Source of the DNA: a virus
Reading direction: 5' to 3' (one strand)
Virus record (IMG/VR): IMGVR_UViG_3300047168_000239
Coordinates: 1 to 26,402 of that record
DNA: 26,402 nt
This document shows positions 2,298 to 20,061 of this stretch, piece after piece. Positions within the stretch are counted from its first letter, which is position 1. Every line of letters begins with the position of its first letter. The notes below the pieces were generated by a model, which did no database searches, was not told the DNA's origin, and saw only the letters and a list, made by a program, of their open reading frames with translations. Made by a program: the position numbers and the translations under genes.

Positions 2298-2312
2298 CGC
2301 TTGGAGCCGCCC

Positions 2313-3259: not shown

Positions 3260-5131
3260 ATGCCTTCAGGGGGCGTCGAAACGCCGATTCCCGCCAGCGT
3301 GTTCGCGCGCCTGACCGCCGCGACGCGCTATGTCATCACCGGCGTCAGTCCCGACAGCTGGTTCGGGCCGCAGCAGCCGCTGGCCCCGCAAGCGCCGCGG
3401 GATGTCAAGGGCCGCCAGTGGGACTATCCCTTCGGCGTCAACCTCAACTATGTCCCGCGCTCCGACAACCTGATGTCGTTCGGCCAGTTGCGCTCGCTCG
3501 CCGACGAACTGCCGCTGCTGCGCGCCGTGATAGAGACCCGCAAGGACCAGATCGCGGCGCTGAACTGGACTGTCCGGCCGCGTGTCTCCGGCGGCGCGGG
3601 CGCGGCAAGCCGTTGCGCGGAATTGCGGGCGTTTCTCTGCATGCCCGACCGGCGGCATGATTTCGCGACCTGGCTGCGAATGATCGTCGAGGACATGCTG
3701 GTCATCGACGCGGCGACGATCTATACGCGCTATGCGCGTTCCGGCGCCGTCTATTCGCTCGACGTGATCGACGGCGCGACGATCAAGCCGCTGATCGGCG
3801 AGGACGGGCGCCCGCCCGCCTCGCCCGATCCCGCCTATCAGCAGGTGCTCCACGGCGTGCCGGCGGCCGACTTCGCCGCCGATGAGTTGCTCTATCTGCC
3901 GCGCAACATGCGCTCGCATCGGCTCTACGGCTTCTCGCCGGTCGAGCAGATCGCGCTGACGATCAACATCGCGCTGCGGCGCGAGCAGGCGACGCTCGAT
4001 TATTACAACACCGGCTCGATCCCGGATTCCTTCGCCACTCTGCCGAAGGATTGGACCGTCGATCAGATAAGGCAGTTCCAGGATTATTTTGACGCGCTGA
4101 TGTCAGGCAATCTCGCGCGGCGGCGGATGGTGAAGTTTATGCCGGCGGAGTTCAAGCTCACCGAGACGCGCCAGCCGCCGCTGAAGGACCTCTACGACGA
4201 ATGGCTGGCGCGGGTGATCTGCTACGCCTTCTCCGTGCCGGCGTCGGCTTTCGTAACGCAGGTCAACCGCGCGACGTCTGAGACGCTTCGCACGCAGGCG
4301 ACGCAGGAAGGGCTGACGCCGCTGAAGGCTTGGGTGAAGGCGGCGCTCGATCGCATGATTGGTCTCTGCTTCCGGGCGCCTGATCTGGAGTTCGCCTGGG
4401 TTGGCGACGACGCGATCGATCCGCTCGAACAGGCGCAGACGATTGCTATCCTCGTCAACGCGGGTGTCAAGACCGTCGTCGAAGCGCGGGCGGATCTGGG
4501 GCTTGGACAGGGCGACAGGGTGGCCAAGTTCAACCCGTATCACGATGAGCAAGGCCGGTTCACGGATGCGGATCATGCGGTCGAACCGGGGACGCCTGAC
4601 CGGGTGAAGCCGGATCGTGGTGTGCAGGTCGCGTATAACGACTTCAGCCCGACGATGTCAGATGCGACGGTCGCCCAAGGGGGTGTGGAGCCGGATCAGG
4701 ACGAGCGAGCCCCGGACGCGGAAACCGACCGGCAATCGGAACCCGACCCAAACACAGCCCTTGCCCGAGCCGTCGCACCGGATGGACTATTACCGGGATT
4801 GTCGTCGCCGAGAACCGACGTTCGCACAATGCCGACCTCCTCCGATCCCTTAACCTCCGCGAGAGCGTTCATCGCCTCGGTAAGTTCTGACCTGACCCTT
4901 GCTTCCACAAAAATCCTGGCAGATTGCCCAACCGACGCCGCGCCAAGCGAGGGCGACATCTTCGGATTGAGATATACATACACGGACGGAAGCTTTATTA
5001 CCCTTAGATATGCAGGGGCAGCCAGCTACCGGACCGCGCCAACCACCGTTAGCGTCGACATCAACAGTCCAAGCGTGAATGTCTTAAATGGTGGCCGCCC
5101 GTTAAAACTAAAATTCCCGGCAGGAGAATGA
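3260..5131 (+). CDS. Portal protein with variable C-terminal toxin-like extension (cassette 1, full length)
   Basis: Residues 1 to about 422 form a phage portal protein, the ring at the capsid vertex through which DNA enters and leaves. It is recognised by its place between protease and capsid and by motifs such as PLLRAVIETRKDQI, YNTGSIPD and RMVKFMPAEFKLTETRQPPLKD. At residues 423-440 comes KFNPYHDEQGRFTDADHA, the conserved boundary found in every cassette here. The last ~190 residues are unrelated to the other copies and end in a beta-rich domain with RYTYTDGSFITLRYAG and GGRPLKLKFP. I infer a toxin domain because the boundary motif resembles those before MuF-type toxins and because a small gene follows immediately. 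The enzymatic activity is not recognised. AGGAGAG before ATG 3260 is a good ribosome binding site. Confidence 0.85.
   Translation: MPSGGVETPIPASVFARLTAATRYVITGVSPDSWFGPQQPLAPQAPRDVKGRQWDYPFGVNLNYVPRSDNLMSFGQLRSLADELPLLRAVIETRKDQIAALNWTVRPRVSGGAGAASRCAELRAFLCMPDRRHDFATWLRMIVEDMLVIDAATIYTRYARSGAVYSLDVIDGATIKPLIGEDGRPPASPDPAYQQVLHGVPAADFAADELLYLPRNMRSHRLYGFSPVEQIALTINIALRREQATLDYYNTGSIPDSFATLPKDWTVDQIRQFQDYFDALMSGNLARRRMVKFMPAEFKLTETRQPPLKDLYDEWLARVICYAFSVPASAFVTQVNRATSETLRTQATQEGLTPLKAWVKAALDRMIGLCFRAPDLEFAWVGDDAIDPLEQAQTIAILVNAGVKTVVEARADLGLGQGDRVAKFNPYHDEQGRFTDADHAVEPGTPDRVKPDRGVQVAYNDFSPTMSDATVAQGGVEPDQDERAPDAETDRQSEPDPNTALARAVAPDGLLPGLSSPRTDVRTMPTSSDPLTSARAFIASVSSDLTLASTKILADCPTDAAPSEGDIFGLRYTYTDGSFITLRYAGAASYRTAPTTVSVDINSPSVNVLNGGRPLKLKFPAGE
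4052..4315 (+). repeat. 264-bp patch identical to 6292-6555
   Basis: Base-by-base reading shows no difference between 4052-4315 and 6292-6555 (constant offset 2240), while flanking portal sequence in the two copies differs at many positions. The patch covers portal residues from about 265 to 352. It suggests recent gene conversion or recombination between cassettes 1 and 2. Confidence 0.85.
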
Positions 5132-5133
5132 CA

Positions 5134-5592
5134 ATGCCGACACTTTCCCATTTCGCGATCTGGATTCAAGATGTATTGGGCGAATCGCTCCATGATGACA
5201 TTGGCGCCATAGAATTTGTTCTCGGCAACCGGATTCCGCTATCTGCCGGGAGCAATCAGCGGTGGCAAGTAGCTGTTGATCTTCTGCATAGGCTTTTGAA
5301 GTGCGACCTGGTTCGGGTTTCACTTTTGTGCGTCGGTCAGTCTCGAAAGAATTTGCTCTCCACACTCCAGACCCACAGCCCGTTCACCAACGCGGGCGGC
5401 CTCGAGTGGAATGGACCCTATTTTCGCGGCTCGGCGCGTTTGAGAGATCTATTTATGCGCTTCCCAGACGCGGACGTACGAAACGGCCCGGCCGACGCCG
5501 GCTTCGTCGATGCGCTTGAAGCGATCTTTGCGGAAAATGGCGTTCCATGGTCGGACGCGCCACTTCTTCCCGTCCACACCACCGTGAGTTGA
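5134..5592 (+). CDS. Candidate immunity protein for cassette 1
   Basis: This cytoplasmic-looking 152-residue protein lies directly after the portal-toxin stop. An ATG at 5128 overlaps that stop as ATGA, but the CAGGAG site at 5121-5126 spaces better for the ATG at 5134 (MPTLSHF), so I prefer the latter; the overlap still implies coupling. No signal peptide or membrane segment is present. I do not recognise the family. The immunity role is inferred from its place after a variable C-terminal domain. Its last ~30 residues (GFVDALEAIFAENGVPW) resemble a remnant at 7492-7596 after cassette 2, so related immunity genes occur twice. Codon use is less GC-biased than in the portal. Confidence 0.6.
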   Translation: MPTLSHFAIWIQDVLGESLHDDIGAIEFVLGNRIPLSAGSNQRWQVAVDLLHRLLKCDLVRVSLLCVGQSRKNLLSTLQTHSPFTNAGGLEWNGPYFRGSARLRDLFMRFPDADVRNGPADAGFVDALEAIFAENGVPWSDAPLLPVHTTVS

Positions 5593-5598
5593 GAACGC

Positions 5599-7326
5599 TA
5601 GTTCGGGCCGCAGCAGCCGCTGGTTCCCCAAGCACCGCTGGACGTCAAGGGCCGCCAATAGGATTATCCCTTCGGCCTCAACATCAACTATGTGCCGCGC
5701 TCCGACAACATCCTGTCGTTCGGCGAACTGCGCACGCTCGCCGACGCGCTGCCGCTGCTGCGCACCGTCATCGAGACGCGCAAGGACCAGATCGCCGCGC
5801 TCAACTGGACGATCCGGCCGCGCGTCTCAGGAGGGGCGGACGCTTCCAGCCGCTGCGCGGCGTTGCGGGCGTTTCTCTGCATGCCCGACCGCCGGCATGA
5901 TTTCGCGACCTGGCTGCGCATGCTGGTCGAGGACATGCTGGTCATCGACGCGGCGACGATCTATCCGCGCTACGCCGCTCTGGCGCGGTCTACTCGCTCG
6001 ACGTGATCGACGGCGCAACGATCAAGCCGCTGATCGGCGAGGACGGGCGCTCACCCGTCTCGCCCGATCCTGTCTATCAGCAGGCGCAGCATGGCGTGCC
6101 AGCGGCCGATTTCGCCGCCGACGAATTGCTGTATCTGCCGCGCAACATGCGCTCGCATAGGCTCTATGGCTTCTCAGCCGGTGAAGCAGATCGCGCTGAC
6201 GATCAACATCGCGCTCAGGCGCGAGCGGGCGACGCTCGACTATTACAACACCGGCTCGATCCCGGACTCGTTCGCGACCCTGCCCAAAGACTGGACCGTC
6301 GATCAGATAAGGCAGTTCCAGGATTATTTTGACGCGCTGATGTCAGGCAATCTCGCGCGGCGGCGGATGGTGAAGTTTATGCCGGCGGAGTTCAAGCTCA
6401 CCGAGACGCGCCAGCCGCCGCTGAAGGACCTCTACGACGAATGGCTGGCGCGGGTGATCTGCTACGCCTTCTCCGTGCCGGCGTCGGCTTTCGTAACGCA
6501 GGTCAACCGCGCGACGTCTGAGACGCTTCGCACGCAGGCGACGCAGGAAGGGCTGGCGCCGCTGAAGGCGTGGGTGAAGGCGGCGCTCGATCGCACGATC
6601 GGGCTTTGCTTCCATGCGCCCGATTTGGAGTTCTGCTGGGTCGGCGACGACGGCGTCGATCCGCTGGAGCAGGCGCAGACCATCGCGATCCTTGTCAACG
6701 CCGGCGTGAAGTCGGTCGCCGAGGCGCGGGCGGAGTTGGGGCTTGGGCTCGCGGCGGCCGTTGCGAAGTTCAACCCGTATCACGATGAGGCGGGAAGGTT
6801 CACCGATGCGGCGAATGCGGTCGAGCCGGGGTCGCATGAGCATGTGAAACCCGATCGCGGGGTGCGGGTAGCTGACAACAGAGACCACAGCACGACGATG
6901 ACGGACGCAGTCGTTGAACAGGTTGACCCTGCCCCCGAAGAGATTCGGCCTGAAGGCAATGGCCAAAGCGAAGCTAATTTCAAGCTATATTGGAACCCTG
7001 ACACAAACGAACTACGAAGCGCAACGACATCTCCAGGAAACGGCTTTGAGGTGCTAAACCTACCGGCCAAGCCGACCTTTCTGGCGGCGCAAACCTCGCC
7101 TGCCAACGCGCCTACCCCGTCAGGATCCACTGACGGGTCGACGGACAATGGTCCTCCAGTTGACGAGCAGAGCTGCGCAACCAACGGAACGCAAGTGGCT
7201 GAGCCGGGATCGACCGCAGTCCCAGCGCCAGGGATATCCGCAGCGCCTGCCCTGGACTCAACAGGAACGCCAACACGGAGACGGTCGCACGTCCTGCGCT
7301 GGAGCCGCGGTCTGGAATTATGCTGA
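5599..7326 (+). pseudogene. Decayed portal-toxin cassette 2
   Basis: Homology to the portal starts abruptly at residue Trp34, seven bases after the immunity stop, with no start codon. Trp34 and Trp54 are both TAG stops (5599 and 5659). A one-base deletion near 5977-5985 and a one-base insertion near 6174 shift the frame out and back. From about 6180 the frame is open through portal residues ~228-420, the NPYHDEAGRFTDA motif and a variable tail to a TGA at 7324. The tail contains LYWNPDTNELRSA, a version of the YYNP.TG.V motif in cassettes 5 and 6. In the same frame a second TGA at 7393 overlaps ATG 7392, so the original toxin probably ended there and 7324 is a nonsense mutation. The toxin domain itself is not recognised. 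Confidence 0.75.
6292..6555 (+). repeat. 264-bp patch identical to 4052-4315
   Basis: This is the second copy of the perfect repeat shared by cassettes 1 and 2, lying in the portal part of the decayed cassette. The surrounding portal sequence is clearly diverged, so the identity is local rather than due to a recent duplication of the whole gene. Confidence 0.85.
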
Positions 7327-7391
7327 TTGCACAGATCAGGAATTGCTTTTCGTGGCGATCCGGATGAAAATCCAGTTCTCGAGGGAAGTCA

Positions 7392-7596
7392 ATGAAAGCG
7401 TATTTCTTCGGATGGGAACGCTCATTTACGGTACAAAGCAGTGACAACAGATAGCACAAACCCAATTCGGAGATCGCGCCCCCCGGCCGCCGTCAATCCC
7501 GGCTTCATCGAAGCGATGGAGGCGATATTCGCCAAGAGCGGCGTTCTCTGGTCGGTTCAACCACTTCTACCGATCCAACCAAAGAACGCTGTCTAG
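7392..7596 (+). pseudogene. Remnants of an immunity gene (cassette 2)
   Basis: An ATG at 7392 overlaps an in-frame toxin stop as ATGA and is preceded by GAGGGA, the usual start of an immunity gene in this array, but the frame ends after 20 codons (MKAYFFGWERSFTVQSSDNR, TAG at 7452). In another frame, 7492-7596 encodes NPGFIEAMEAIFAKSGV.W followed by QPLLPI and a stop, clearly related to the C-terminus of the cassette 1 immunity protein. The gene therefore looks internally deleted or fused from two immunity genes. It is unlikely to be functional. Confidence 0.55.
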
Positions 7597-7619
7597 CGTC
7601 CTGTAGAAACAAACCGCAT

Positions 7620-7737
7620 GTCGAACTGACGATTAACATCGCGCTATAGCGGGCGCAGGCGACGCCCGGCGCCTGCAACACCGGCCGTCCCAGATTCCAG
7701 CGCCACCCCGCCGACGGAATCGCCAGTTGATCAGGCA
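7620..7737 (+). pseudogene. Portal gene scrap in the capsid leader
   Basis: The sequence GTCGAACTGACGATTAACAT matches the portal codons for VEQIALTINIAL (residues from 228) with a nine-base deletion. It continues with CAGGCGACGC, CAACACCGGC and a degraded GATCAGGCAG, with an internal TAG. This is a third, badly decayed portal copy between the immunity remnant and the capsid gene. From 7738 to 7927 I see no gene, only the capsid leader with its ribosome binding site. Confidence 0.6.
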
Positions 7738-7927
7738 GCCGCTACGGTTGCTTTTGGGCTTCTTCCCCTTCGAGGATAGCTTTCAAGAGCCTCCGACTTT
7801 GCCCTTTCTATTATCGGCTCCGATTGAATTGCACTGTCGCCAGCCTCGGCCCGCAATCTCAACCGAAAACTGTCCCAAACCGCCGCGTCCCCTGACGCGT
7901 CGCTCTCTCACGCCACAGGAACCTCGC

Positions 7928-9415: not shown

Positions 9416-9449
9416 ACACAGGCTCGCCTCAATCATAAGCGGAGCAAAG

Positions 9450-10262
9450 ATGTCTGCTTACGACCTCACAACGGTCGCGAACGTCAAGGCTTGGCTGGGC
9501 TTGCCCAGCGAGCCGACGGCGAGCGATACGATGCTGGCCGCGCTGGTCACCGCCGCGAGCCGTGCGATCTATGCGGCCTTGAGCCGGACGTCGCTGCTTC
9601 CGCAACGCTACACGGACACGATCGATATTGAGAGCGAACGCGTCTATCTCGCGAACTGGCCCATTCAACAGGTGACTTCGGTCATCCTCGATGGCCTTGT
9701 CGTGCCTCCGGCGGGAGCGCCTCCGCAACTTGGCTTTCTGTTGCAGCCTGCCGACCTCGCGCCGCCGGGCCGACCGCAGGCCCTCGACATTTTCGGCCGG
9801 CGCTTTCTGAGACGCCGGCAGAGCCTCATCGTCGCCTATCAGGCGGGTTACGCTATTGAGGGCGAAGCTTGGATGGCGCCCGCGACGGCGCCTTATCTGA
9901 TTAGCGCAGCGGCGCCGTTCGGCGCGTGGGCGAGCGACCTCGGCGTCGTCTATTCGAACTCGGGGCTGTTTCTGCAAGCGACGACGGGCGCACCGGCGGC
10001 TGGACAATATTCGGTCTCCGCCGGTCTCTATCGGTTCAGCGCCAGCGATGCCGGCGCCGCGCTCTCGCTCTCTTATGGCTTCATTCCGCAGGATCTCGTA
10101 CAGGCCGCGACGGAACTCGCCGCCGAGCGATTCCGCGCCTCCGAGCGCATCGGTTTGCGTTCCAAATCGCTCGGCGGCCAGGAAACGATCTCCTACGACA
10201 CCTCGGGGGTCTCGGCCTCTGTGTTGGCGCTCATAGCGCCTTACCGGCGCGCGGCCTTCTGA
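9450..10262 (+). CDS. Head-tail connector protein (gp6-like) with inserted beta module
   Basis: This 270-residue protein would form the adaptor ring under the portal. The N-terminus (YDLTTVANVKAWLGLPSE, AALVTAASRAIYAALSRT) is the helical start of the gp6/gp15-type connector family, and LVQAATELAAERFRASERIGLRSKSLGGQ near the C-terminus is its closing helix. Between them, 9942-10082 encodes GVVYSNSGL, PAAGQYSVSAGLYRF and SDAGAALSLSYGF. This module also occurs in the tail tube protein (20608-20757) and makes this connector longer than usual. GGAGCAAAG before the ATG is the ribosome binding site. The stop overlaps the next start (TGATG at 10260-10264). Confidence 0.8.
   Translation: MSAYDLTTVANVKAWLGLPSEPTASDTMLAALVTAASRAIYAALSRTSLLPQRYTDTIDIESERVYLANWPIQQVTSVILDGLVVPPAGAPPQLGFLLQPADLAPPGRPQALDIFGRRFLRRRQSLIVAYQAGYAIEGEAWMAPATAPYLISAAAPFGAWASDLGVVYSNSGLFLQATTGAPAAGQYSVSAGLYRFSASDAGAALSLSYGFIPQDLVQAATELAAERFRASERIGLRSKSLGGQETISYDTSGVSASVLALIAPYRRAAF
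9942..10082 (+). repeat. Beta-sandwich module shared with tail tube (copy 1)
   Basis: The encoded pattern GVVY..SG..L, PAAGQY.V.AG.Y.FS and DAGAA..SY matches the tail tube segment at 20608-20757. Amino acids are conserved but codons differ, so this is a shared protein module and not a recent DNA copy. Confidence 0.75.
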
Positions 10263-11178: not shown

Positions 11179-11210
11179 GCGGCGCCTCCCATTCACCAAA
11201 GGACAAGCTC

Positions 11211-12848
11211 ATGCCTTCAGGGGGCGTCGAAACGCCGATTCCCGCCAGCGTGTTCGCGCGCCTGACCGCCGCGACGCGCTACGTCATAACAGGCGTCAGT
11301 CCCGAAAGCTGGTTCGGGCCGCAACAACCTCTTGTCCCGCAAGCGCCGCCGGAGGTGAAGGGGCGCCAGTGGGATTATCCCTTCGGCCTCAACATCAACT
11401 ATGTGCCGCGCTCCGACAACCTGATGTCGTTTGGCCAGTTGCGCTCGCTCGCCGACGAACTGCCGCTGCTGCGCACCGTGATAGAGACCCGCAAGGATCA
11501 GATCGCGGCGCTGAACTGGACTGTCCGGCCGCGTGTCTCCGGCGGCGCGGGCGCGGCAAGCCGTTGCGCGCCGCTGCGCGCCTTCCTCGCCATGCCCGAT
11601 CGCCGGCATGATTTCGCGACTTGGTTACGCATGATCGTCGAGGACATGCTGGTCATCGACGCGGCGACGATCTATCCGCGCTATGCGCGTTCCGGCGCCG
11701 TCTACTCGCTCGACGTCATCGATGGGGCGACGATCAAGCCGCTGATCGGCGAGGACGGGCGAGCGCCCGTCTCGCCCGATCCCGCCTATCAGCAGGTGCT
11801 GCACGGCGTGCCGGCGGCCGATTTCGCCGCCGACGAATTGCTCTATCTTCCGCGCAATCTTCGCTCGCATCGGCTTTATGGTTTCTCGCCGGTCGAGCAG
11901 ATCGCGCTGACGATCAACATCGCGCTCAGGCGCGAACAGGCGACGCTCGATTACTACAACACCGGCTCGATCCCGGATTCCTTCGCGACGCTGCCGAAAG
12001 ATTGGACGGTCGATCAGATCCGGCAGTTCCAGGATTATTTCGACGCGCTAATGTCAGGAAATCTCGCGCGCCGGCGCATGGTGAAGTTCATGCCGGCGGA
12101 GTTCAAGCTAACCGAGACGCGCCAGCCGCCGCTCAAAGACATGTATGACGACTGGTTGGCGCGGGTGATCTGCTACGCCTTCTCGGCGCCAGCGTCCGCG
12201 TTCATTACGCAGGTCAACCGCGCGACATCGCAGACTTTGCGCACACAGGCAGCGACGGAAGGCCTCGTACCGCTGAAGGCCTGGGTGAAGATGGCGCTCG
12301 ATCGTATGATCGCGCTTTGCTTCCGAGCGCCCGATTTGGAGTTCTGCTGGGTCGGCGACGACGGGGTCGATCCCCTTGAGCAGGCGCAGACGATGGCGAT
12401 CCTCGTCAACGCTGGCGTCAAGACCGTCGCCGAGGCGCGGGCGGAGTTGGGGCTCGGGCAAAGCAAGGGGGTCTTGAAGGGCAATTCGTATCACGATGAG
12501 GCAGGGCGGTTCACGGATGCGGATCATGCGGTGGAGCCGGGGGCGCATGAGCCGGTGAAGCCGGATCGTGGGATTCAGATCGCAGAGGATGAGAACCCCA
12601 CGACGATGAGGGATGCGGGGGGCGTTGGTCGCACTCCGACTTCGCAATCGCCGCAGCTTCTCGCGCAAGATCTTTCTCAGACTTGTGGTGCGTACATCGC
12701 AGCCAACCGGCAGGGGAGAGTCCTAAGGGTATTCCCCGGGCAGTTCTTGACCAGCACGCTCCAAGAGGTAATTGCTGCAGCGAAGGCCGGCGACCCTGCC
12801 GCTAAGACCGCGTGCAAGCTATTATTTGACAACCGCTTCAAAAAATGA
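11211..12848 (+). CDS. Second full-length portal protein with variable toxin-like C-terminus (cassette 3)
   Basis: This 545-residue protein is a second complete portal. The first 71 bases are identical to the portal at 3260, and the protein stays close to it up to the boundary motif (NSYHDEAGRFTDADHA, residues from about 423). The C-terminal ~105 residues differ entirely: a linker, then a compact helical domain with NRQGRVLRVFPGQFLTS, LQEVIAAAKAGDPAAKTA and CKLLFDNRFKK. Short C-terminal domains of this style end many polymorphic toxins; I cannot name the family safely. AAAGGA precedes ATG 11211, so it can be translated. A second portal gene after the tail completion gene is out of place and founds the cassette array. 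Confidence 0.85.
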   Translation: MPSGGVETPIPASVFARLTAATRYVITGVSPESWFGPQQPLVPQAPPEVKGRQWDYPFGLNINYVPRSDNLMSFGQLRSLADELPLLRTVIETRKDQIAALNWTVRPRVSGGAGAASRCAPLRAFLAMPDRRHDFATWLRMIVEDMLVIDAATIYPRYARSGAVYSLDVIDGATIKPLIGEDGRAPVSPDPAYQQVLHGVPAADFAADELLYLPRNLRSHRLYGFSPVEQIALTINIALRREQATLDYYNTGSIPDSFATLPKDWTVDQIRQFQDYFDALMSGNLARRRMVKFMPAEFKLTETRQPPLKDMYDDWLARVICYAFSAPASAFITQVNRATSQTLRTQAATEGLVPLKAWVKMALDRMIALCFRAPDLEFCWVGDDGVDPLEQAQTMAILVNAGVKTVAEARAELGLGQSKGVLKGNSYHDEAGRFTDADHAVEPGAHEPVKPDRGIQIAEDENPTTMRDAGGVGRTPTSQSPQLLAQDLSQTCGAYIAANRQGRVLRVFPGQFLTSTLQEVIAAAKAGDPAAKTACKLLFDNRFKK

Positions 12849-12861
12849 GGAGGGCGAGAGC

Positions 12862-13095
12862 ATGCCAAGTCAACTCTTTTACGTCATGAAACTGCTCGAA
12901 GAGCGACACGTTCATTTTTTTCTCGCGCAAACGCAAAAGGACGCGGTCACTATTTTTGCTACAATGGTAGGTAAGCGCATTGAGATATACGTTGATTCGG
13001 ACGACAATGTGGACTTCTCCGTGTTTCTAGGAACCGACAACGTCGTTGTCGGAGTCGACGCTCTGCTGAAGGAATTAAATGCGGATCAAATATAA
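12862..13095 (+). CDS. Small candidate immunity protein (cassette 3)
   Basis: This 77-residue acidic protein starts 13 bases after the portal-toxin stop, behind a near-perfect AGGAGGG (12847-12853). It reads MPSQLFYVMKLLEERHVHFF, then TIFATMVGKRIEIYVDSDDN. The pattern of an N-terminal helix, HF.L, and a GKRIEIYV...D beta hairpin recalls small immunity-like proteins found after polymorphic toxins, but I name no family. An internal ATG at 12886 (MKLLEERH) is possible, though the ribosome binding site favours 12862. The DNA is visibly richer in A and T than the portal genes, which suggests separate acquisition with its toxin. Confidence 0.65.
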   Translation: MPSQLFYVMKLLEERHVHFFLAQTQKDAVTIFATMVGKRIEIYVDSDDNVDFSVFLGTDNVVVGVDALLKELNADQI

Positions 13096-13161
13096 TACAA
13101 TATAATTTGTCTTATCTTGCCGCTGACCTGCCCGTCGACGAACGCGAGCATTCATCTTGAG

Positions 13162-14157
13162 ATGAGTCGCGACCTCGCGCGCCGTCGCATGGTGAAATTC
13201 ATGCCGGCGGAGTTCAAGCTCACCGAAACGCGCCAGCCGCCGCTCAAAGACATGTACGACGAATGGTTGGCTCGGGTCATCTGCTACGCCTTCTCCGTGC
13301 CCGCCTCCGCCTTCATCACCCAGGTCAACCGCGCGACCTCGCAGACCCTTCGCGCGCAGGCGGCGACGGAAGGCCTCGTGCCGCTGAAGGCCTGGGTTAA
13401 GATGGCGCTCGATCGGGTGATCGCGCTTGGCTTCAAACAACCAGACCTGGAGTTCTACTGGGTCGGCGACGACGGGGTCGATCCGCTTGAGCAGGCGCAG
13501 ACGATCGCGATCCTCGTCAACGCCGGCGTGAAGACGGTCGCCGAGGCGCGGGCGGAGCTGGGGCTCGGGCAAAGCAAGGGGGTCTTGAAGGGCAATCCGT
13601 ATCACGATGAGGCGGGGCAGTTCACGGATGCGGATCATGCGGTGGAGCCGGGGGCCGCGGAGCCAAAGGCACAGGGTCGAGGGAGTCGGGACGCGGAGGA
13701 TCAGCACCGACCACCCCTGCTCGACGTGCGTTATCGCCCTCCATCCGCAGCGGATCACGTCATAAGAAACCACTTGCACGAGGCGCCAGGCGACGCGGTA
13801 ACTTTTAAATCAGGCGACGGTCATACTTTTCTGGCGCCTCCCAGTGCCAACTTCGCCCGGGTGTTCGCAGCCGGAGAGACGGACGGATTGTTGGGAGCCA
13901 GCCACAACGTTGGTTGGTGGGGAACATTTGACTTCCAGCGAGAGGGTGATACGTTTATTCATCCATACACTAATGCGTCCAACTACGCGGTCGGCGCTTA
14001 TCTCGCCGGAGCGGGTTGCCCCTGGCCCGAGGCTCTCTTCATTGCAAATAGTTTTGCCCATTCAATGTCGTCCAACGCGGGATCGCAGGATCAAGTGGAT
14101 TGGTGGCTGCGAGGATGGTCAGATGCGACCAATAAGACTGGTCCGTTTTCAAAGTAA
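13162..14157 (+). CDS. 5'-truncated portal fragment fused to a toxin-like domain (orphan cassette 4)
   Basis: Portal homology begins at residue 281 (M.R.LARRRMVKFMPAEF), so more than half of the portal is missing and this cannot be a functional portal. The frame stays open through the boundary motif NPYHDEAGQFTDADHA and a linker into a new ~140-residue domain: VRYRPPSAADHVIRN, then GASHNVGWWGTFDFQ, YTNASNYAVGAYLAGAGCPW and DQVDWWLRGW. This domain is unlike the others; a distant link to toxin-44-type domains is only a guess. The ATG at 13162 has no clear ribosome binding site; an in-frame TTG at 13117 is the other option. I read it as a silent donor cassette followed by a membrane immunity gene. 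Confidence 0.75.
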   Translation: MSRDLARRRMVKFMPAEFKLTETRQPPLKDMYDEWLARVICYAFSVPASAFITQVNRATSQTLRAQAATEGLVPLKAWVKMALDRVIALGFKQPDLEFYWVGDDGVDPLEQAQTIAILVNAGVKTVAEARAELGLGQSKGVLKGNPYHDEAGQFTDADHAVEPGAAEPKAQGRGSRDAEDQHRPPLLDVRYRPPSAADHVIRNHLHEAPGDAVTFKSGDGHTFLAPPSANFARVFAAGETDGLLGASHNVGWWGTFDFQREGDTFIHPYTNASNYAVGAYLAGAGCPWPEALFIANSFAHSMSSNAGSQDQVDWWLRGWSDATNKTGPFSK

Positions 14158-14243
14158 CGGCTCATCGCACTTAGCGATCGATGACAATCAATGAATTCCT
14201 CTCGCGCGTTTGTCAGGTTTGTGGTATAGTCTGAGGCCAACAG

Positions 14244-14558
14244 GTGCACAGTCCCCGTAATGAGCAATTCTTCCTCGCTATCCTTAACGCCTTCGGGATC
14301 TTACTATACCTCGCTTATGCTTCAAAAGTTTGGTTACCGCCGGACGATCAGGAAATCGTTTGGGATTTTGGCGCAGGACTTCAGTGGTTTCTCACTGCGC
14401 TCCCCTGGCTGCTGGCTTGTGCAATTATAGATTTTATTTTATTTCGAACTATCATCGCGCGATTCTTGCTATACGGGCGATGGCAATCTCTGTTAGTATT
14501 GACGACGTGCGGTTTCGCCTGGCTTGGCGCAATCTATATAGATTTCGTCCATCATTGA
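14244..14558 (+). CDS. Small integral membrane protein, candidate immunity (cassette 4)
   Basis: This 104-residue protein has about three hydrophobic segments: FFLAILNAFGILLYLAYA, then WFLTALPWLLACAIIDFILF, then LLVLTTCGFAWLGAIYI. It lies 86 bases after the cassette 4 toxin stop. I chose the GTG at 14244 with TGAGGCC upstream; the ATG at 14260 is in another frame and gives no membrane protein. Membrane immunity proteins usually guard against toxins acting in the periplasm or on the membrane, in contrast to the soluble immunity candidates of the other cassettes. An extended -10 (TGGTATAGT, 14222-14230) lies just upstream. The DNA is strikingly AT-rich compared with its neighbours. Confidence 0.6.
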   Translation: MHSPRNEQFFLAILNAFGILLYLAYASKVWLPPDDQEIVWDFGAGLQWFLTALPWLLACAIIDFILFRTIIARFLLYGRWQSLLVLTTCGFAWLGAIYIDFVHH

Positions 14559-14662
14559 CTAAATATTATTTTCTTGCATTCTTATCGCTATGAATATTAA
14601 AGCACTTTCTGATCGGCGAGGACGGACGCGCGCCGGCCTCGCCCGATCCAGCTTATCAGCAG

Positions 14663-16429
14663 GTGTTGCACGGCGTGCCGGCGGCCGATTTCTCAGCCGA
14701 TGAATTGCTCTACATTCCCCGCAACATGCGCTCGCACCGGCTTTATGGCTTCTCCCCGGTCGAGCAGATCGCGCTGACGATCAACATCGCGCTCAGGCGC
14801 GAGCAGGCGACGCTCGATTACTACAACACCGGCTCGATCCCGGACTCCTTCGCGACTCTGCCGAAGGATTGGACCGTCGATCAGATACGCCAGTTCCAGG
14901 ACTATTTCGATGCGCTGATGAGCGGCAATCTGGCGCGCCGGCGCATGGTGAAATTCATGCCGGCGGAGTTCAAGCTGACCGAGACGCGCCAGCCGCCGCT
15001 GAAGGATCTCTACGACGAATGGCTGGCGCGGGTGATCTGCTACGCGTTCTCCGTGCCGGTCTCCGCGTTCATTACGCAGGTCAACCGCGCGACCTCTCAG
15101 ACGCTGCGCACGCAGGCGGCGACAGAAGGACTGGCGCCGCTGAAGGCCTGGGTGAAGATGGCGCTCGATCGGATGATCGCGCTTTGCTTCCGTGCGCCTG
15201 ACCTGGAGTTCTGCTGGGTCGGCGACGACGGTGTCGATCCGCTGGAGCAGGCGCAGACCATCGCGATCCTGGTGGGGGCTGGCGTGAAGACGGTCGCCGA
15301 GGCGCGGGCGGAGCTGGGGCTCGGGCAGACAAATGGCGTCGCAAAGTTCAACCCGTATCACGACGAGGCAGGGCGGTTCACCGACGCGGATCATGCGGTC
15401 GAGCCGGGGTCGGGCGCGAAGCCAAACGGCAGGGCTGGGAGAGCCGGACGTGACACAGGGTTGCCTGGCTCATCAACCCCGCAAACTTCGTCTCTTGCGC
15501 ACCGAGCGTTTCTGGCCGCCACCCAGGCGGCAAGGGAAGTCGTCGCAACCGCTACAGAGGCAGGCGCGACCGGCCCCCGTCAATTGGTCGGAAGCATTGT
15601 GTCATCGGCGGCGGCGACTGGAGCCCTTGCGACGGCGGCCCTGCTCGCGATGACCGATTCGACGGGCGGAGTGAAACAAGGGCCGGTTCCCGGACGCCCG
15701 GACATGAGCTATAGCTGGGCGCAAGACGAAACATCAGCGACTTTCAGTGTCCAGTCCAACGGCCAGACGCAAAGCTTTCGTGCGCAGCAGGACGGCGCAG
15801 GCGATTTCGTCGATGCGCAGGGCAATATCGTGGCGACGGTGGAGACCGGCCCTGACGGGCAGCGGACGCTCTCCGTCGATCCCGACGCCGTCGATGCCGC
15901 GATTGCGGCCTCCGCCGGCTCCGCGAGCGGATCGGGTTCAGGAGCCGGGCCGGGCGGCGAGTTGCAGGTTCTCTATTATAACCCAGACACCGGAGACGTA
16001 ACCTACGCCTCCGCCGGCGCCCCACCGCCGGGATATGTGCCGGTGTCGGGGACACCGGCCGATCAGGCTGGGAAGCCGTGTCAATCCGGCGATGCAGGCC
16101 CCTCATCGAGTAGTTCGGGCTGGAAGCCTCCGCAAGAAGCGCTTGACAAAATTCCACCGGATTGGGCGGCCCCTAAACCAAATAATGGCAATGACGGACT
16201 TCGTTGGTTTGACCCGAGGGGAGCCAAGTTCGGTGGCGTTCGTATTGATCCCGGAAACCCGAACAGTGCATTCCCATCTCAGCAGGTCGATCACGTGGTT
16301 GTCAGATCAGACGGGTTGGTTCTCGGTCGAGATGGTTCCCCAATCTCTGGAGGAATAGATGACGACCCAATCAACGCGCACATACCGCTTGATGAATGGC
16401 TGAAATGGAGGTACTGGAATAAACCATGA
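14663..16429 (+). CDS. 5'-truncated portal fragment with pre-toxin module and C-terminal toxin domain (orphan cassette 5)
   Basis: Portal homology starts at 14609 (residue Leu178, LIGEDGRAPASPDPAYQQ) without a start codon; the first possible start is GTG 14663, with no ribosome binding site. Portal sequence runs to NPYHDEAGRFTDADHA (from residue 228 of this frame). A long pre-toxin follows: a hydrophobic Ala-rich helix at about 305-330, a beta region with SYSWAQDETSATFSVQ, and YYNPDTGDVTYASAGAPPPG. The last ~75 residues form a compact domain with VRIDPGNPNSAFPSQQVDHV, VLGRDGSPI and AHIPLDEWLKWRYWNKP. I associate this pattern with C-terminal toxins of Rhs/CdiA-type proteins but cannot name the activity. 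Its stop overlaps the immunity start as ATGA. Confidence 0.75.
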   Translation: MLHGVPAADFSADELLYIPRNMRSHRLYGFSPVEQIALTINIALRREQATLDYYNTGSIPDSFATLPKDWTVDQIRQFQDYFDALMSGNLARRRMVKFMPAEFKLTETRQPPLKDLYDEWLARVICYAFSVPVSAFITQVNRATSQTLRTQAATEGLAPLKAWVKMALDRMIALCFRAPDLEFCWVGDDGVDPLEQAQTIAILVGAGVKTVAEARAELGLGQTNGVAKFNPYHDEAGRFTDADHAVEPGSGAKPNGRAGRAGRDTGLPGSSTPQTSSLAHRAFLAATQAAREVVATATEAGATGPRQLVGSIVSSAAATGALATAALLAMTDSTGGVKQGPVPGRPDMSYSWAQDETSATFSVQSNGQTQSFRAQQDGAGDFVDAQGNIVATVETGPDGQRTLSVDPDAVDAAIAASAGSASGSGSGAGPGGELQVLYYNPDTGDVTYASAGAPPPGYVPVSGTPADQAGKPCQSGDAGPSSSSSGWKPPQEALDKIPPDWAAPKPNNGNDGLRWFDPRGAKFGGVRIDPGNPNSAFPSQQVDHVVVRSDGLVLGRDGSPISGGIDDDPINAHIPLDEWLKWRYWNKP

Positions 16430-16830
16430 CCACGCTCGCTTACCCCCATTCAAGACGCGACGTCGAAGCTGCCGTCAGTGGTCTCGCCGACACGGAGTTG
16501 CAAAAGCGCGCCTGGATTGCGCGAGAGCCTATACCTTCTGGGCAATGCCCTCGCTTCGACGATGCCGTTCACCGACTCTTTGAGGACAGCGGTCTTGCCG
16601 ACGGCCCGCATACCTGCGTCGGTTATATACTCTACGACGAACAAGAGGCTGACTGTCTTGTCGGCTTGATGAGACATCTTAGCGATCTTCTCGGCAAGTA
16701 CGGAAAATCGAAGCCGTTCGAGGCATATTTCAACGCCCCAGAATGGTCTGCGATTGTGGCCAGGGCAAACGCCTGTTTGCGACAGCTTACACTCAACGAC
16801 AGCAGGAACGCGTCTTCGTTGGGGGCGTGA
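16426..16830 (+). CDS. Candidate immunity protein (cassette 5)
   Basis: This soluble 134-residue protein overlaps the toxin stop (ATGA, 16426-16429), the tightest form of toxin-immunity coupling. It contains FDDAVHRLFEDSGLADGP, then GYILYDEQEADCLVGLMRHL and AYFNAPEWSAIVARANACL, an all-helical plan. The D..HRLFEDSGLAD and L.DEQEA patterns resemble the SCO4402-like family of small helical proteins often found after polymorphic toxins (moderate to low confidence). There is no signal peptide or membrane segment, so the paired toxin probably acts in the cytoplasm. Confidence 0.65.
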   Translation: MTTLAYPHSRRDVEAAVSGLADTELQKRAWIAREPIPSGQCPRFDDAVHRLFEDSGLADGPHTCVGYILYDEQEADCLVGLMRHLSDLLGKYGKSKPFEAYFNAPEWSAIVARANACLRQLTLNDSRNASSLGA

Positions 16831-16886
16831 TTACGACTCTCAAACGCCTCTCATAGAATTAAGTCTCCGATCCGGCCTTCCAGTAG

Positions 16887-17693
16887 GCACCGCATGACGA
16901 GCCGGCGGCGGATTTCGCCGACGACGAACTGCTCTATCTGCCGCGCACCCTCCGTTCGCATCGGCTCTATGGCTTCTCGCCGGTCGAGCAGATCGCGCTG
17001 ACGATCAACATCGCGCTCAGGCGCGAGCAGGCGACGCTCGATTACTACAACACCGGCTCGATCCCGGACTCCTTCGCCACTCTGCCGAAGGATTGGACTG
17101 TCGATCAGATACGCCAGTTCCAGGATTATTTCGACGCGCTGATGACCGGCAATCTGACGCGTCGGCGCATGGTGAAGTTCATGCCGGCGGAGTTCAAGCT
17201 CACCGAGACGCGCCAGCCGCCGCTAAAGGAGCTCTATGACGAGTGGCTGGCCCGCTTCATCTGCTACGCCTTCTCGGCGCCGGCCTCTGCGTTCATTACG
17301 CAGGTCAACCGCGCGACATCGCAGACTTTGCGCACACAGGCGGCGACGGAAGGGCTGGCGCCGCTGAAGGCGTGGGTGAAGATGGCGCTCGATCGGGTCA
17401 TCGCGCTTGGCTTCCGTGTGCCCGATTTGGAGTTCTGCTGGGTCGGCGACGACGGGGTCGATCCGCTTGAGCAGGCGCAGACGATCGCGATCCTCGTCAA
17501 CGCCGGCGTGAAGACGGTCGCCGAGGCGCGGGCGGAGCTGGGGCTCGGGCAAAGCAAGGGGGTCTTGAAGGGCAATCCGTATCACGATGAGGCGGGGCAG
17601 TTCACGGATGCGGATCATGCCGTTGCGTCGGGATCGGGCGCGAAGCCGCCCAACAATGCGGCTTCGACGGCGAGTGAGGCGGCGAAACCATGA
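16887..17693 (+). pseudogene. Portal fragment of orphan cassette 6, cut off by an in-frame TGA
   Basis: Portal homology begins near residue 196 (APHDEPAADFADDELLYLPR) directly after a TAG at 16884, so there is no start; the first ATG is at 17142 inside the portal. The frame stays open through the boundary motif NPYHDEAGQFTDADHA to a TGA at 17691. The same frame then continues without interruption (GGAAFSGAPFAIRATQAAVE) into the pre-toxin and toxin at 17748-18818. One nonsense codon therefore separates carrier from toxin. Portal sequence around 17530-17620 matches cassette 4 (13551-13640) almost base for base. Confidence 0.75.
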
Positions 17694-17747
17694 GGCGGTG
17701 CTGCCTTTAGCGGGGCGCCTTTTGCCATTCGCGCTACGCAAGCTGCA

Positions 17748-18818
17748 GTGGAGGCCGCGAACAGCGCTCTGAGCGACGCGGAGCGTGCAGCAGCCACATC
17801 CGAAGAGACGACGCCCTGGGCAACCCGCGCGTTGCAGGCCGCCACGGACGCGACAAAGGCTGTCGTGAATGGCGCGCAGGAGACGGGCTCCGCGCTAGCA
17901 AGTGGGCTTGCGCGAGGTCTTACCGCGTCGTCGATGGCCACCGGGGCCCTGGCGGCAGCGTTTCTCGCCGCCTCGACAAAAGCAACCGGCGGCATTCAGC
18001 AAGGCTCGGTTCCCGACCGCCCCGACATGACCTACCGCTGGGCGCAGGACGAAACATCAGCGACTTTCAGCGTCCAATCAGGCGGCCAAACGCAGAGCTT
18101 TCGCGCCCAACAAAACAGCGCTGGCGACTTTGTCGACGCGCAAGGCAACGTCGTCGCGACCGTGGACACCGGAGCCGACGGGCAGCGATCGCTCGTCGTC
18201 GATCCCGACGCCGTGGACGCCGCAATTGCAGCTTCTTCCGGGTCTGTGAGCGGATCGAATTCGGGAGCCGGTTCGGCGGGCGAGCCGCAAGTGCTTTACT
18301 ACAATCCGGAAACTGGCGACGTGACCTACGCGCCCTCCGGCGCCCCGCCGCCGGGTTATGAGCCGGTATCCGGGGCTCAGAGCGATCAGGTGGGGAAGCC
18401 AAGCGGGGGAACGGAAACCGGAACGCCGTCTAACCGTGCGACTTCACTGGTCGATCCGAATCTGATAGCTCGCCTTGTGGCTTCGGGAGTTAGAATTGCA
18501 CCTGAAAATGTCGTCGCAACGGGTACGGCGCCGGGCGGCCAGACGGTGTGGATGGAGACTGGAAACGCTAAAGCTGGACTCGTGCACATACTCGACCACA
18601 CGCGGGACTTTGCTGGCATTGGCGTGTCGCAATCGGATATTCTGAACGTGGTAATGGGCGCAATCGCGACTGGCGACATAATTGGCGTGCAAGGCAAGGG
18701 AGGCAATCCGCGAGACATCTACCGAACGGTGGTCAGCGGCCAAGCCTATGGAATAGCCATTCAGATCGGAGACAACGGATTCATCGTTAGCGCAAACCCT
18801 ACAGGAAAAGTCCCATGA
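17748..18818 (+). CDS. Pre-toxin plus BECR-fold nuclease toxin domain (cassette 6)
   Basis: This frame is the toxin half of cassette 6. Counting from GTG 17748 (356 residues, no clear ribosome binding site), an Ala-rich hydrophobic helix lies at about 50-82. A pre-toxin closely related to cassette 5 follows (TYRWAQDETSATFSVQ, YYNPETGDVTYAPSGAPPPG). Residues ~235-356 form the toxin: LIARLVASGVRI, VWMETGNAKAGLVHILDH (His280, His284), GDIIGVQGKGGNPRDIYR (Arg322) and DNGFIVSANP. This order matches the phage Barnase-EndoU-ColicinE5/D-RelE-like (PBECR) ribonuclease family, which cleaves RNA in the target cell. The stop overlaps the immunity start (ATGA). The upstream TGA probably silences it unless recombined onto an intact portal. 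Confidence 0.75.
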   Translation: MEAANSALSDAERAAATSEETTPWATRALQAATDATKAVVNGAQETGSALASGLARGLTASSMATGALAAAFLAASTKATGGIQQGSVPDRPDMTYRWAQDETSATFSVQSGGQTQSFRAQQNSAGDFVDAQGNVVATVDTGADGQRSLVVDPDAVDAAIAASSGSVSGSNSGAGSAGEPQVLYYNPETGDVTYAPSGAPPPGYEPVSGAQSDQVGKPSGGTETGTPSNRATSLVDPNLIARLVASGVRIAPENVVATGTAPGGQTVWMETGNAKAGLVHILDHTRDFAGIGVSQSDILNVVMGAIATGDIIGVQGKGGNPRDIYRTVVSGQAYGIAIQIGDNGFIVSANPTGKVP

Positions 18819-19144
18819 AAAAAGTAAGGTTGATGGCTGACTATGGATGTGACCCTCTTTGGAAACAGCCACCATATGGCGTTGGAACCCTCTCTCCAGA
18901 GTCACTTCCAATATCTGAGCCACTTCGCAAAGCTTTGCACGATTGGGCCTCCGAATACGATCGTACGCTCGACCGAATTTATCCGCCCGATTCCGGCTTC
19001 GATACCCAAGAAGCTGCTAACAACTTCACGGCGACGGGTTACATCCTATTGGAGAAGCTCAAAGAGGAACTCGGTAGCGAATATGAAATAGACTACTTTC
19101 CGAACGCCTATCGCAGGGATATCCCATTGCGCGGCAAACCATAA
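18815..19144 (+). CDS. Immunity protein for the BECR-type toxin (cassette 6)
   Basis: This 109-residue soluble protein starts at an ATG overlapping the toxin stop. It reads VRLMADYGCDPLWKQPPYGV, PISEPLRKALHDWASEYD, and ends in LLEKLKEELGSEYEIDYFPN. The pattern ADY.C.PLW, L..W..EYD, SGF and LG..YE..YF is one I know from small proteins encoded directly after BECR-type C-terminal toxins, so this pair is the best supported toxin-immunity match in the window. It would act in the cytoplasm by binding its nuclease. The base composition is less GC-rich than the portal genes. Confidence 0.75.
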   Translation: MKKVRLMADYGCDPLWKQPPYGVGTLSPESLPISEPLRKALHDWASEYDRTLDRIYPPDSGFDTQEAANNFTATGYILLEKLKEELGSEYEIDYFPNAYRRDIPLRGKP

Positions 19145-19162
19145 TTATTAACGATTGCTTAG

Positions 19163-20061
19163 GCCGCCTATCAGCAGGCGCCGCATGGCGTGCCGGCGGC
19201 CGATTTCGTCGCCGACGAACTGCTCTATCTTCCGCGCAATCTTCGCTCGCATCGGCTTTATGGCTTCTCGCCGGTCGAGCAGATCGCGCTGACAATCAAT
19301 ATCGCGCTCAGGCGCGAGCGGGCTACCGCGGCGGCATTACAACACCGGCTCGATCCCGGATTCCCTCGCGACGCTGCCGAAAGATTGGACGGTCGATCAG
19401 ATCCGGCAGTTCCAGGATTATTTCGACGCGCTGATGTCAGGAAATCTCGCGCGCCGGCGCATGGTGAAGTTTATGCCGGCGGAGTTCAAGCTGACGGAGA
19501 CGCGCCAGCCGCCGCTGAAGGATATGTATGACGAATGGTTGGCGCGGGTGATCTGCTACGCCTTCTCGGCGCCAGCGTCCGCGTTCATTACGCAGGTCAA
19601 CCGCGCGACATCGCAGACTTTGCGCACACAGGCAGCGACGGAAGGCCTCGTACCGCTGAAGGCCTGGGTGAAGATGGCGCTCGATCGTATCGATCGCGCT
19701 TTGCTTCCGAGCGCCCGATTTGGAGTTCTGCTGGGTCGGCGACGACGGGGTCGATCCGCTTGAGCAGGCGCAGACGATCGCGATCCTCGTCAACGCCGGC
19801 GTGAAGACGGTCGCCGAGGCGCGGGCGGAGTTGGGGCTCGGGCCGGAAAACGGGGTGGCGAAGTTCAGCGTTCAGTCAATTGGACAGAAGCTGAGTTTTC
19901 GCGCGCAGCAGAACGCCGCTGGCGATTTCGTCGATGCCCAAAGCAATATCGTCGCGACCGTGGATATCGGCCCCGACGGGCAACGAACGCTCGCCGTCGG
20001 CTCTGCTTCAGTCGACACTGCGATTTCGGCGTCCGCCGGTTCCACGAGCGGGTCGAGCTAA
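19163..20061 (+). pseudogene. Broken portal/pre-toxin cassette 7 without toxin
   Basis: Portal homology begins at residue 192 (AYQQAPHGVPAADF) after a TAG at 19160. One-base insertions near 19327 and 19690 (GTATCGATCGCG against GTATGATCGCG in cassette 3) break the frame twice. At 19861-19866 the portal motif VAKF joins directly to the middle of the pre-toxin (SVQSIGQKLSFRAQQNAAGD), skipping NPYHDE and the hydrophobic helix. The frame ends at 20061 (STSGSS) with no YYNP motif, toxin or immunity gene. The cassette looks like the worn-out distal end of the array. From 20062 to 20268 I see only the tail tube leader. Confidence 0.75.

What the first reader, a model, noticed from the sequence alone, without database searches (positions are those of the whole stretch)
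3260..20061. Portal protein used as the carrier of a polymorphic toxin system
Seen: two complete portal genes and three intact portal fragments share a constant region up to NPYHDE.G.FTDADHA, then diverge completely, and four of these five are followed within 13 bases by a different small gene. Known: this constant-carrier/variable-tip/immunity plan defines polymorphic toxins (CdiA, Rhs, MuF proteins), and phage MuF proteins carry BECR nucleases after a similar boundary. Inference: here the portal itself is the carrier, so up to twelve toxin copies per virion would face the capsid interior and leave with the DNA. I cannot tell from sequence alone whether portal-toxin fusions of this kind have been described.
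Basis: partly seen in the sequence, partly recalled or inferred. Interest (0 to 1): 0.9.

Follow-up and report, generated by a model that had tools for sequence, protein, structure and literature searches.

The report
Phage portal carries swappable toxins
A soil phage appears to use its portal, the ring through which DNA enters and leaves its head, as the base for interchangeable toxin domains, each followed by a probable antidote gene, with spare pairs stored behind it; one pair is related to a known bacterial toxin and antidote whose joint structure is solved.

Summary
The window is an IMG/VR phage contig with two complete portal genes and five broken or partial copies. The constant portal ends at an NPYHDE-type boundary; different tips and small downstream genes follow. 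None of the five tips matches a Pfam toxin family, but tip 5 and its downstream gene match both chains of one crystallised toxin-immunity complex, CdiA-CT/CdiI of Serratia marcescens (PDB 7M5F; E 4.6e-26, 9.8e-21). Homologues of tips 2 and 4 sit beside homologues of their downstream genes in unrelated bacteria, partly on Rhs proteins. In related phages full portal ORFs end in colicin E5, RNase A-type or CdiA (BWH57-type) toxin domains. Tip and downstream gene travel together: among 46 full portals, 23 of 27 tip-alike pairs have alike downstream genes, against 3 of 876 tip-unlike pairs. Of 37 pairs with cores at least 90% alike, 35 differ in tip. Portal fragments follow 27 of 40 tip-bearing portals and 4 of 66 others. 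An isolate, Roseiarcus fermentans DSM 24875, has such an array.

The carrier interpretation is supported by homology; toxicity and delivery are untested. MuF toxins and portal-effector fusions are published; my searches found no portal-based toxin-immunity arrays. New variant of a known kind.

The parts
3260..5131 (+). Full portal 1 with tip 1 (tip about 4679-5128), intact 623-aa ORF
   Evidence: Pfam PF04860 E 2.8e-22; SD-like AGGAG before ATG; tip 1 aligned with 9 relatives' tips; no Pfam match of its own
5128..5592 (+). Imm1, predicted immunity gene of tip 1 (overlaps portal stop by 4)
   Evidence: Relatives of tip 1 are followed by homologues
5572..7326 (+). Broken portal copy with a degenerate tail
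   Evidence: tblastn register from core residue 25; frame lost
11211..12848 (+). Full portal 2 with tip 2 (12606-12845), intact 545-aa ORF, after the neck gene
   Evidence: Pfam E 4e-21; tip 2 relatives L034, L045; homologue at the C end of an Rhs-like ORF in Caballeronia
12862..13095 (+). Imm2
   Evidence: Homologue follows the tip 2 homologue in Caballeronia (32.8%, E 7.8e-8) and in L045 (45%)
13162..14157 (+). Portal fragment (from core residue 281) with intact tip 3 (13738-14154)
   Evidence: tip relatives L010, L012, L019; R. fermentans prophage (42%)
14244..14558 (+). Imm3, predicted multi-TM protein
   Evidence: Hydropathy, and homologous membrane protein behind the same tip in L010 (41% over 87); similar one in L012
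14609..16429 (+). Portal fragment (from core residue 178), spacer, intact tip 4 (16091-16426)
   Evidence: tip 4 homologues on two Streptomyces Rhs proteins, in Cronobacter and in Janthinobacterium
16426..16830 (+). Imm4, DUF7945 / SCO4402 family
   Evidence: PF25656 E 9e-18, NF047838 E 3.2e-29; homologues follow tip 4 homologues in Cronobacter and Janthinobacterium (E 2e-19, 9e-19) and weakly in Streptomyces (E 0.001)
16869..17693 (+). Portal fragment of cassette 5, ended by an in-frame stop at 17691-17693
17748..18818 (+). Spacer and tip 5 (18456-18815), homologue of CdiA-CT BWH57
   Evidence: PDB 7m5f chain C, phmmer E 4.6e-26; profile with L022 E 7.2e-42
18815..19144 (+). Imm5, homologue of CdiI BWH57
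   Evidence: PDB 7m5f chain A, E 9.8e-21
19166..20061 (+). Decayed portal fragment joined to the spacer, no tip left

Best explanation
The phage's portal gene is the carrier of a polymorphic toxin system. The constant portal of 420-odd residues ends in a conserved junction (N-x-Y/H-H-D-E-x-G-R/Q-F or D-Q-P-R-D-E-x-G-R-W), and a toxin domain with its immunity gene is attached behind it as an exchangeable cassette (shown by comparison). New cassettes enter by recombination, probably within the portal's 3' half; displaced ones stay behind as portal fragment + tip + immunity gene, as orphan CdiA-CT/CdiI modules do (inferred from the arrays). The fused portal is assembled at the head vertex with its C terminus towards the interior, the tip is released, probably by the maturation protease, and enters the next cell with the DNA, where it harms cells lacking the matching immunity gene; lysogens and sister phages are protected, and orphan immunity genes widen that protection (all inferred).
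For: Tip 5 and Imm5 match chains C and A of one CdiA-CT/CdiI complex, 7M5F; PMC8616854 (passages) describes it as a BECR-fold predicted RNase with its CDI immunity protein. In L022 one 653-aa frame is portal plus that toxin (residues 530-651, E 2.9e-36), followed by the CdiI homologue (E 1.4e-17). Tip 2 and Imm2 homologues adjoin at an Rhs-like ORF; tip 4 and Imm4 homologues adjoin at 3 of 3 loci examined (of 5 hits), one an annotated Rhs gene; tip 5 homologues lie on 'hemagglutinin repeat' (2) and 'ALF repeat' (1) proteins among 6 plasmid hits. Above the curated cut-off on full portals of relatives: RNAse_A_bac (L037), Colicin_E5 (L026, L031); on fragments: Ntox37 and Gln_amidase (L141), glucosaminidase (L135). 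Named immunity families among 66 downstream genes: Imm-NTF2-2 3, Imm35 1. Co-occurrence: 91 of 116 vs 4 of 2095; full portals alone 23 of 27 vs 3 of 876. Of 37 full-portal pairs with cores at least 90% alike, 35 have unlike tips. Fragments within 2 kb: 27 of 40 tip-bearing portals, 4 of 38 short-tailed, 0 of 17 MuF-like, 0 of 11 other. Isolate array in R. fermentans.
Against: No toxicity, neutralisation, virion content or injection was or could be tested. None of the window's five tips matches a Pfam toxin family, and in the two alignments of 55 and 27 tips at most about 15 matched toxin-type families, several below the curated cut-off; NCBIfam on the 55 gave one RNase A-like match. Tip 1, on the first full portal, has no relative in Pfam or PDB and no solved fold match. 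The best-identified toxin in the window (tip 5) lies behind a fragment cut by a stop. No Imm5 homologue was found beside tip 5 in the Rhizobium CdiA-type locus, nor an Imm3 homologue beside tip 3 in Acidisarcina. The R. fermentans full portal's tip looks shifted out of frame (by eye). The portal is not known to be ejected. Signal-peptide genes behind some tips do not fit purely cytoplasmic delivery. Some tip clusters are probably joined by shared linker.
Confidence: 0.8

Rival explanations
1. The tips are effectors injected for the phage's own benefit (host takeover, counter-defence), not weapons against other bacteria; downstream genes merely protect the host cell while the phage assembles.
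For: Related portals carry Acb1 (anti-CBASS, E 3.3e-39, L130) and NUDIX plus ADP-ribosyltransferase (L133) tails; PMC5512222 and PMC9503650 (passages) describe PBECR, 2H and Nudix fusions to portal or MuF as injected effectors.
Against: Window tips 2, 4 and 5 are relatives of Rhs/CDI-type toxins with matching downstream genes; tip exchange at near-constant portal and orphan cassettes fit competition better.
Confidence: 0.12
2. The tips act inside the lysogen as toxin-antitoxin or addiction modules and are not delivered; the portal is only a genetic landing site.
For: Orphan cassettes persist with their downstream genes although their portal fragment cannot form a portal.
Against: Tips are kept in one frame with the portal in 46 full-portal ORFs (a few of these tips may be shifted, as in L087), needless for an addiction module.
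Confidence: 0.1
3. Fragments and tips are recombination debris without function.
For: Copies at 5572-7326 and 19166-20061 are broken; cassette 5 has a stop.
Against: Tip-downstream pairing is conserved across divergent portals; the two full portals compare with dN/dS 0.134; fragments accompany mainly tip-bearing portals.
Confidence: 0.03
4. The array is a metagenome mis-assembly of strain variants.
For: Metagenome contig with near-identical repeats.
Against: A second contig from another sample (L008, 13.3 kb read) has the same order from the broken copy to the tip 5 fragment; an isolate, R. fermentans, has the same kind of array.
Confidence: 0.02

Closest known systems
MuF polymorphic toxins of temperate phages (PMC5576092, PMC3482391; passages read)
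   Same: Phage head protein as constant part, variable C-terminal toxin, small predicted immunity gene behind, predicted loading into the head
   Different: Carrier here is the portal itself; no MuF domain in the window's portals; displaced cassettes inside the morphogenesis module. In more distant relatives MuF sits in the same slot of the portal (8 of 8 scanned, chosen from 23 MuF-like tails)
Portal fusions to PBECR, 2H and Nudix domains (PMC5512222, PMC9503650; passages read)
   Same: Effector domain on the C terminus of a portal
   Different: Described there as injected effectors; the passages read do not describe paired immunity genes, tip exchange or orphan arrays
Contact-dependent inhibition CdiA/CdiI, BWH57 type (PDB 7M5F, PMC8616854; passages read)
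   Same: Tip 5 and Imm5 are homologues of this toxin and immunity protein; orphan-module layout (recalled for CDI)
   Different: The carrier is a phage portal, not a CdiA filament
Rhs toxins
   Same: Homologues of tips 2 and 4 occur at the C end of Rhs-type proteins with homologous downstream genes
   Different: The carrier here is a portal; Rhs repeats were not searched for in the window

Membership tests
Polymorphic toxin system | Constant carrier with sharply bounded variable C-terminal domain | tested here: met
   35 of 37 full-portal pairs with cores at least 90% alike have unlike tips
Polymorphic toxin system | C-terminal domains shared with other toxin carriers | tested here: met
   Met for tips 2, 4 and 5; not for tip 1; tip 3 only in a separate ORF behind an Rhs gene
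Polymorphic toxin system | Cognate gene directly behind, moving with the tip | tested here: met
   91 of 116 vs 4 of 2095 pairs; 23 of 27 vs 3 of 876; Imm5 = CdiI homologue
Polymorphic toxin system | Orphan toxin-immunity cassettes headed by a carrier fragment | tested here: met
   Fragments behind 27 of 40 tip-bearing portals vs 4 of 66 others
Polymorphic toxin system | Toxicity and neutralisation | not testable with these tools
   Needs expression assays
Polymorphic toxin system | Delivery into target cells | not testable with these tools
   Needs virion proteomics and injection assays
MuF toxins | MuF domain in the carrier | tested here: not met
   Window portals give Phage_portal and a sub-cut-off Portal_Mu match, no MuF
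Phage portal (PF04860, HK97-like) | Phage_portal domain among packaging genes | tested here: met
   PF04860 E 2.8e-22; PHROG portal E 1.5e-72; terminase, protease and connector genes around. The NCBIfam HK97 portal model matches only below its cut-off (28 of 112 bits)
CDI system | Toxin carried on a CdiA filament protein | tested here: not met
   The frame before tip 5 is portal-derived; in L022 one frame joins portal and toxin
CDI system | CdiB transporter encoded nearby | not tested
   No CdiB search was run

The most novel reading that the evidence does not exclude
Portal-tip phages are a toxin-delivery system of their own: up to twelve portal-borne toxins per head are cut free inside the capsid by the maturation protease at the conserved junction, injected whether or not the phage DNA can establish itself, and so let particles kill lysogens of rival phages that repressor immunity would protect, while tandem orphan cassettes serve as an immunity library and a store for switching the tip.
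Probability: 0.25. Interest if true: 0.92.

Novelty: new variant of a known kind. Interest (0 to 1): 0.78.

Why it matters
If the tips are delivered, a core structural protein of tailed phages doubles as an antibacterial weapon drawing on the same toxin pool as CDI and Rhs systems. It would link phage-phage and lysogen-lysogen competition to polymorphic toxins, give a natural way of loading enzymes into phage heads at a fixed place, and offer a cultured host (R. fermentans DSM 24875) in which the open question of what head-borne phage toxins are for could be tested.

Tried and rejected
Tip 5 structure prediction from two sequences gave pLDDT 43.8 and was not used; the sequence match to 7M5F served instead. 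Tip 1 model (pLDDT 74.7) gave no convincing fold: best Foldseek E 0.17; best VIA Z 7.6 to a designed protein, within the background the tool describes. Profiles of tips 1, 2 and 3, and tip 4 alone, found no PDB relative worth following (weak hits at E 0.085-0.11 taken as chance). The TruB-C_2 match to tip 5 (E 0.0015, below cut-off) and the SpoIIE match near tip 4 (E 0.054) were taken as chance. Labels I first gave by eye and then checked: the L052 tip ('JAB-like') and the L151 tip ('transglycosylase-like') match nothing in Pfam that supports the name, so the labels are dropped; one of the two L135 glucosaminidase matches (the one on the full portal) is weak, E 0.0028, and the Ntox37 matches on full portals (L094 7.4e-5, L161 3.3e-4) and the M23 match (L163) are below the cut-off. 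Whether the fragments are decaying local duplicates: their dN/dS of 0.05-0.16 against the full portals, with dS of 0.31-0.71 in nine of ten comparisons (0.11 in the tenth, remnant 6 against portal 2), fits import from diverged working portals for most; remnant 6 may be a local copy; not proven. A site-specific breakpoint: 74 copies starting after core residue 20 (a few are full portals with a divergent N-terminus) show a rise at 160-215 but no single point. Tip 3 homologue in Acidisarcina lies in its own ORF behind an Rhs gene. Limits of counts: the three viral scans kept the best 80 of 168, 531 and 443 relatives. In one search, 183 tails were sorted by regular expressions, 70 used; dropped were 52 short and 29 longer motif-less tails, 23 MuF-like, 7 with tips under 45 residues and 2 open-ended. 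L008, near-identical to the window, stands for it in part and was left out; loci re-fetched from the same contigs were left out too. Rows are related, so the Fisher values are not probabilities of independent events. Literature: eight searches in an open-access library without preprints; one search listed 15 of 523 and 5 of 9. Passages only were read of nine papers: PMC9503650, PMC3482391, PMC5576092, PMC5512222, PMC11699363, PMC8616854, PMC7302621, PMC10654107, PMC9206674.
Full report
What is in the window. The 26,402-base window is IMG/VR contig IMGVR_UViG_3300049216_000573. It holds a phage morphogenesis module: terminase, maturation protease, portal, a gene in the capsid position (PHROG family of unknown function), connector genes, then an array of portal copies, then a gene in the tail-tube position, tape measure and fibre-like genes (several names are by position). 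Portal genes at 3260-5131 and 11211-12848 are complete and compare with dN/dS 0.134 over 437 codons. Five further copies are partial or broken.

The observation. Six copies reach the boundary motif. Four of five tips are followed within 13 bases by a small gene; for tip 3 the gap is 86 bases. Two corrections: the portal part before tip 5 ends at an in-frame stop (17691-17693), and tips 4 and 5 and remnant 6 share a spacer before their final domains.

What the tips are. None of the five window tips matches a Pfam toxin family. Tip 5 (18456-18815) nevertheless matches chain C, and the next gene (18815-19144) chain A, of PDB 7M5F, the CdiA-CT/CdiI complex of Serratia marcescens BWH57 (E 4.6e-26 and 9.8e-21). 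[quoted passage not shown] Tip 4 has five plasmid hits: two Streptomyces proteins annotated as Rhs, Janthinobacterium, Ochrobactrum, and a Cronobacter array that includes VENN pre-toxin, polymorphic toxin and MafI immunity annotations and reads like orphan CDI modules. In the three loci examined a homologue of Imm4 follows, weakly in Streptomyces (E 0.001). Imm4 belongs to DUF7945/SCO4402. Tip 2 has a homologue at the end of an ORF with Rhs-core-like sequence (my reading; the record has no gene annotation there) in a Caballeronia plasmid, followed by an Imm2 homologue. Against this, the Rhizobium CdiA-type relative of tip 5 shows no Imm5 homologue behind it, and the Acidisarcina relative of tip 3 no Imm3 homologue. 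Tip 3 recurs in related portals with a homologous multi-TM protein behind it. Tip 1 recurs in nine aligned relatives with homologous downstream genes but matches no known toxin or fold.

Related phages. Three scans of viral contigs and one of genomes gave about 200 loci (205 records read, the window included). Full portal ORFs above a curated cut-off end in RNase A-type CdiA-CT (L037, E 9.8e-13) or colicin E5 RNase (L026, L031, about 1e-10). In L022 one frame is portal plus the BWH57-type toxin, with the CdiI homologue overlapping its stop; its weak PBECR1 match (E 0.0024) agrees with the BECR fold. Weaker matches on full portals: Ntox37 (L094, L161), DUF4258 (L050, L092), RNAse_A_bac (L009), glucosaminidase (L135), M23 (L163). 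On portal fragments: Ntox37 (L141, 8.3e-14), Gln_amidase (L141, 3.9e-5), glucosaminidase (L135, 6.9e-12). Other portals of the wider family end in MuF (8 of 8 scanned, chosen from 23 MuF-like tails), Acb1 (L130) or NUDIX plus ADP-ribosyltransferase (L133). So the portal C-terminus is a general slot for head-borne domains, and the immunity-paired tips are one use of it. Most of the 82 tips scanned match no toxin family.

Pairing and exchange. Among 70 usable tips, 91 of 116 tip-alike pairs have alike downstream genes, against 4 of 2095 tip-unlike pairs. With 46 full portals only, and the near-copy L008 left out: 23 of 27 against 3 of 876; one tip-alike and 131 tip-unlike pairs lacked a downstream ORF on at least one side. 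Of 37 pairs with cores at least 90% identical, 35 have unlike tips; 26 of the 28 tip-alike pairs lie between cores under 90%. The cassette, not the genome, is the unit that moves. These rows are related sequences, so I give counts rather than lean on the Fisher values.

Immunity genes. Among 66 downstream genes, 3 match Imm-NTF2-2, 1 Imm35, 1 CPCC and 2 DUF7945; the 34 families found (25 shown) are otherwise mixed and often weak. The genes behind both glucosaminidase-type tips of L135 and behind the papain-fold tip of L141 begin with signal-peptide-like sequences, as do those behind two tips that Pfam does not identify (L151; the second candidate ORF of L052); those behind the colicin E5 tips and the RNase A-type tip of L037 do not (signal peptides judged by eye). 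This agreement between predicted immunity location and toxin target is expected of toxin-immunity pairs but rests on few cases, and it means some tips probably act in the periplasm.

Arrays. A portal fragment lies within 2 kb behind 27 of 40 tip-bearing portals, 4 of 38 short-tailed, 0 of 17 MuF-like and 0 of 11 other portals. The isolate Roseiarcus fermentans DSM 24875 carries terminase, a full portal and several fragments with a tip 1-like and a tip 3-like tip and two Imm1 homologues, so such arrays are not a metagenome artefact. In the window the distal copies of the second array are the more damaged ones, fitting displacement away from the intact portal; the broken copy right behind cassette 1 fits less well.

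How it probably works. Shown by comparison: constant portal, boundary, exchangeable tip, paired downstream gene, displaced cassettes. Inferred: toxicity, assembly of tip-bearing portals, release of the tip and its passage into the next cell. That portals are twelve-fold rings and that their C-termini face the capsid interior is recalled, not tested. The portal is not known to leave the particle, so release by the maturation protease, encoded next to the portal, is my proposal. The junction motif also occurs near the end of an archaeal provirus portal (E 3e-4) and in capsid maturation proteases of other phages (E 0.1 to 9), which would fit a processing or packaging signal but proves nothing.

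Known or new. MuF toxins are published, with predicted (PMC5576092) and tested (Bxa, PMC11699363) immunity proteins, as are portal fusions to PBECR, 2H and Nudix domains (PMC5512222, PMC9503650) and portal-MuF fusions (PMC7302621), all seen as passages. Searches combining portal with polymorphic toxin, toxin domain, immunity, orphan, contact-dependent and MuF terms, and polymorphic toxin with virion and capsid, showed no account of the portal as carrier of immunity-paired, exchangeable toxins or of such arrays; most subscription papers and all preprints are outside that library. I file it as a new variant of a known kind.

Noticed in passing
L246 (FR725450.1) 1792-4019: Archaeal provirus Nvie-Pro1: its portal carries the same junction motif near its end, and the overlapping next gene has an annotated Rel_Spo-like domain followed by a small gene; possibly a portal-linked toxin in an archaeal virus.
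   Followed up: partly
L130:2453-3838 and L133:7261-8946: Portals fused to an Acb1 anti-CBASS domain (E 3.3e-39) and to NUDIX plus ADP-ribosyltransferase domains.
   Followed up: no
L247 2015-3292; hits H50-H56, H58, H59: The junction motif also lies inside capsid maturation proteases, twice in the Manatee Spring phage; the hits are weak (E 0.2-9).
   Followed up: partly
Roseiarcus fermentans C7, about 165000-178000 (L087, L236): Array with two Imm1 homologues in a row and, by eye, two CPCC-like genes, as if extra immunity genes were collected.
   Followed up: partly
74 portal copies starting after core residue 20, in 48 loci: Starts are commonest at portal residues 160-219 (30) and 270-339 (23), and none lies after residue 354; reason unknown.
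   Followed up: partly
L099:11141-12041 and L100:650-1415: The junction motif occurs in proteins that are not portals by this search in Hyphomicrobium and Caulobacteraceae genomes, the latter peptidase-like by eye.
   Followed up: no
NZ_CP119142.1 and NZ_CP119140.1: Two 2.17-Mb Neisseria gonorrhoeae records filed as plasmids hold a portal relative; by size they look like chromosomes.
   Followed up: no
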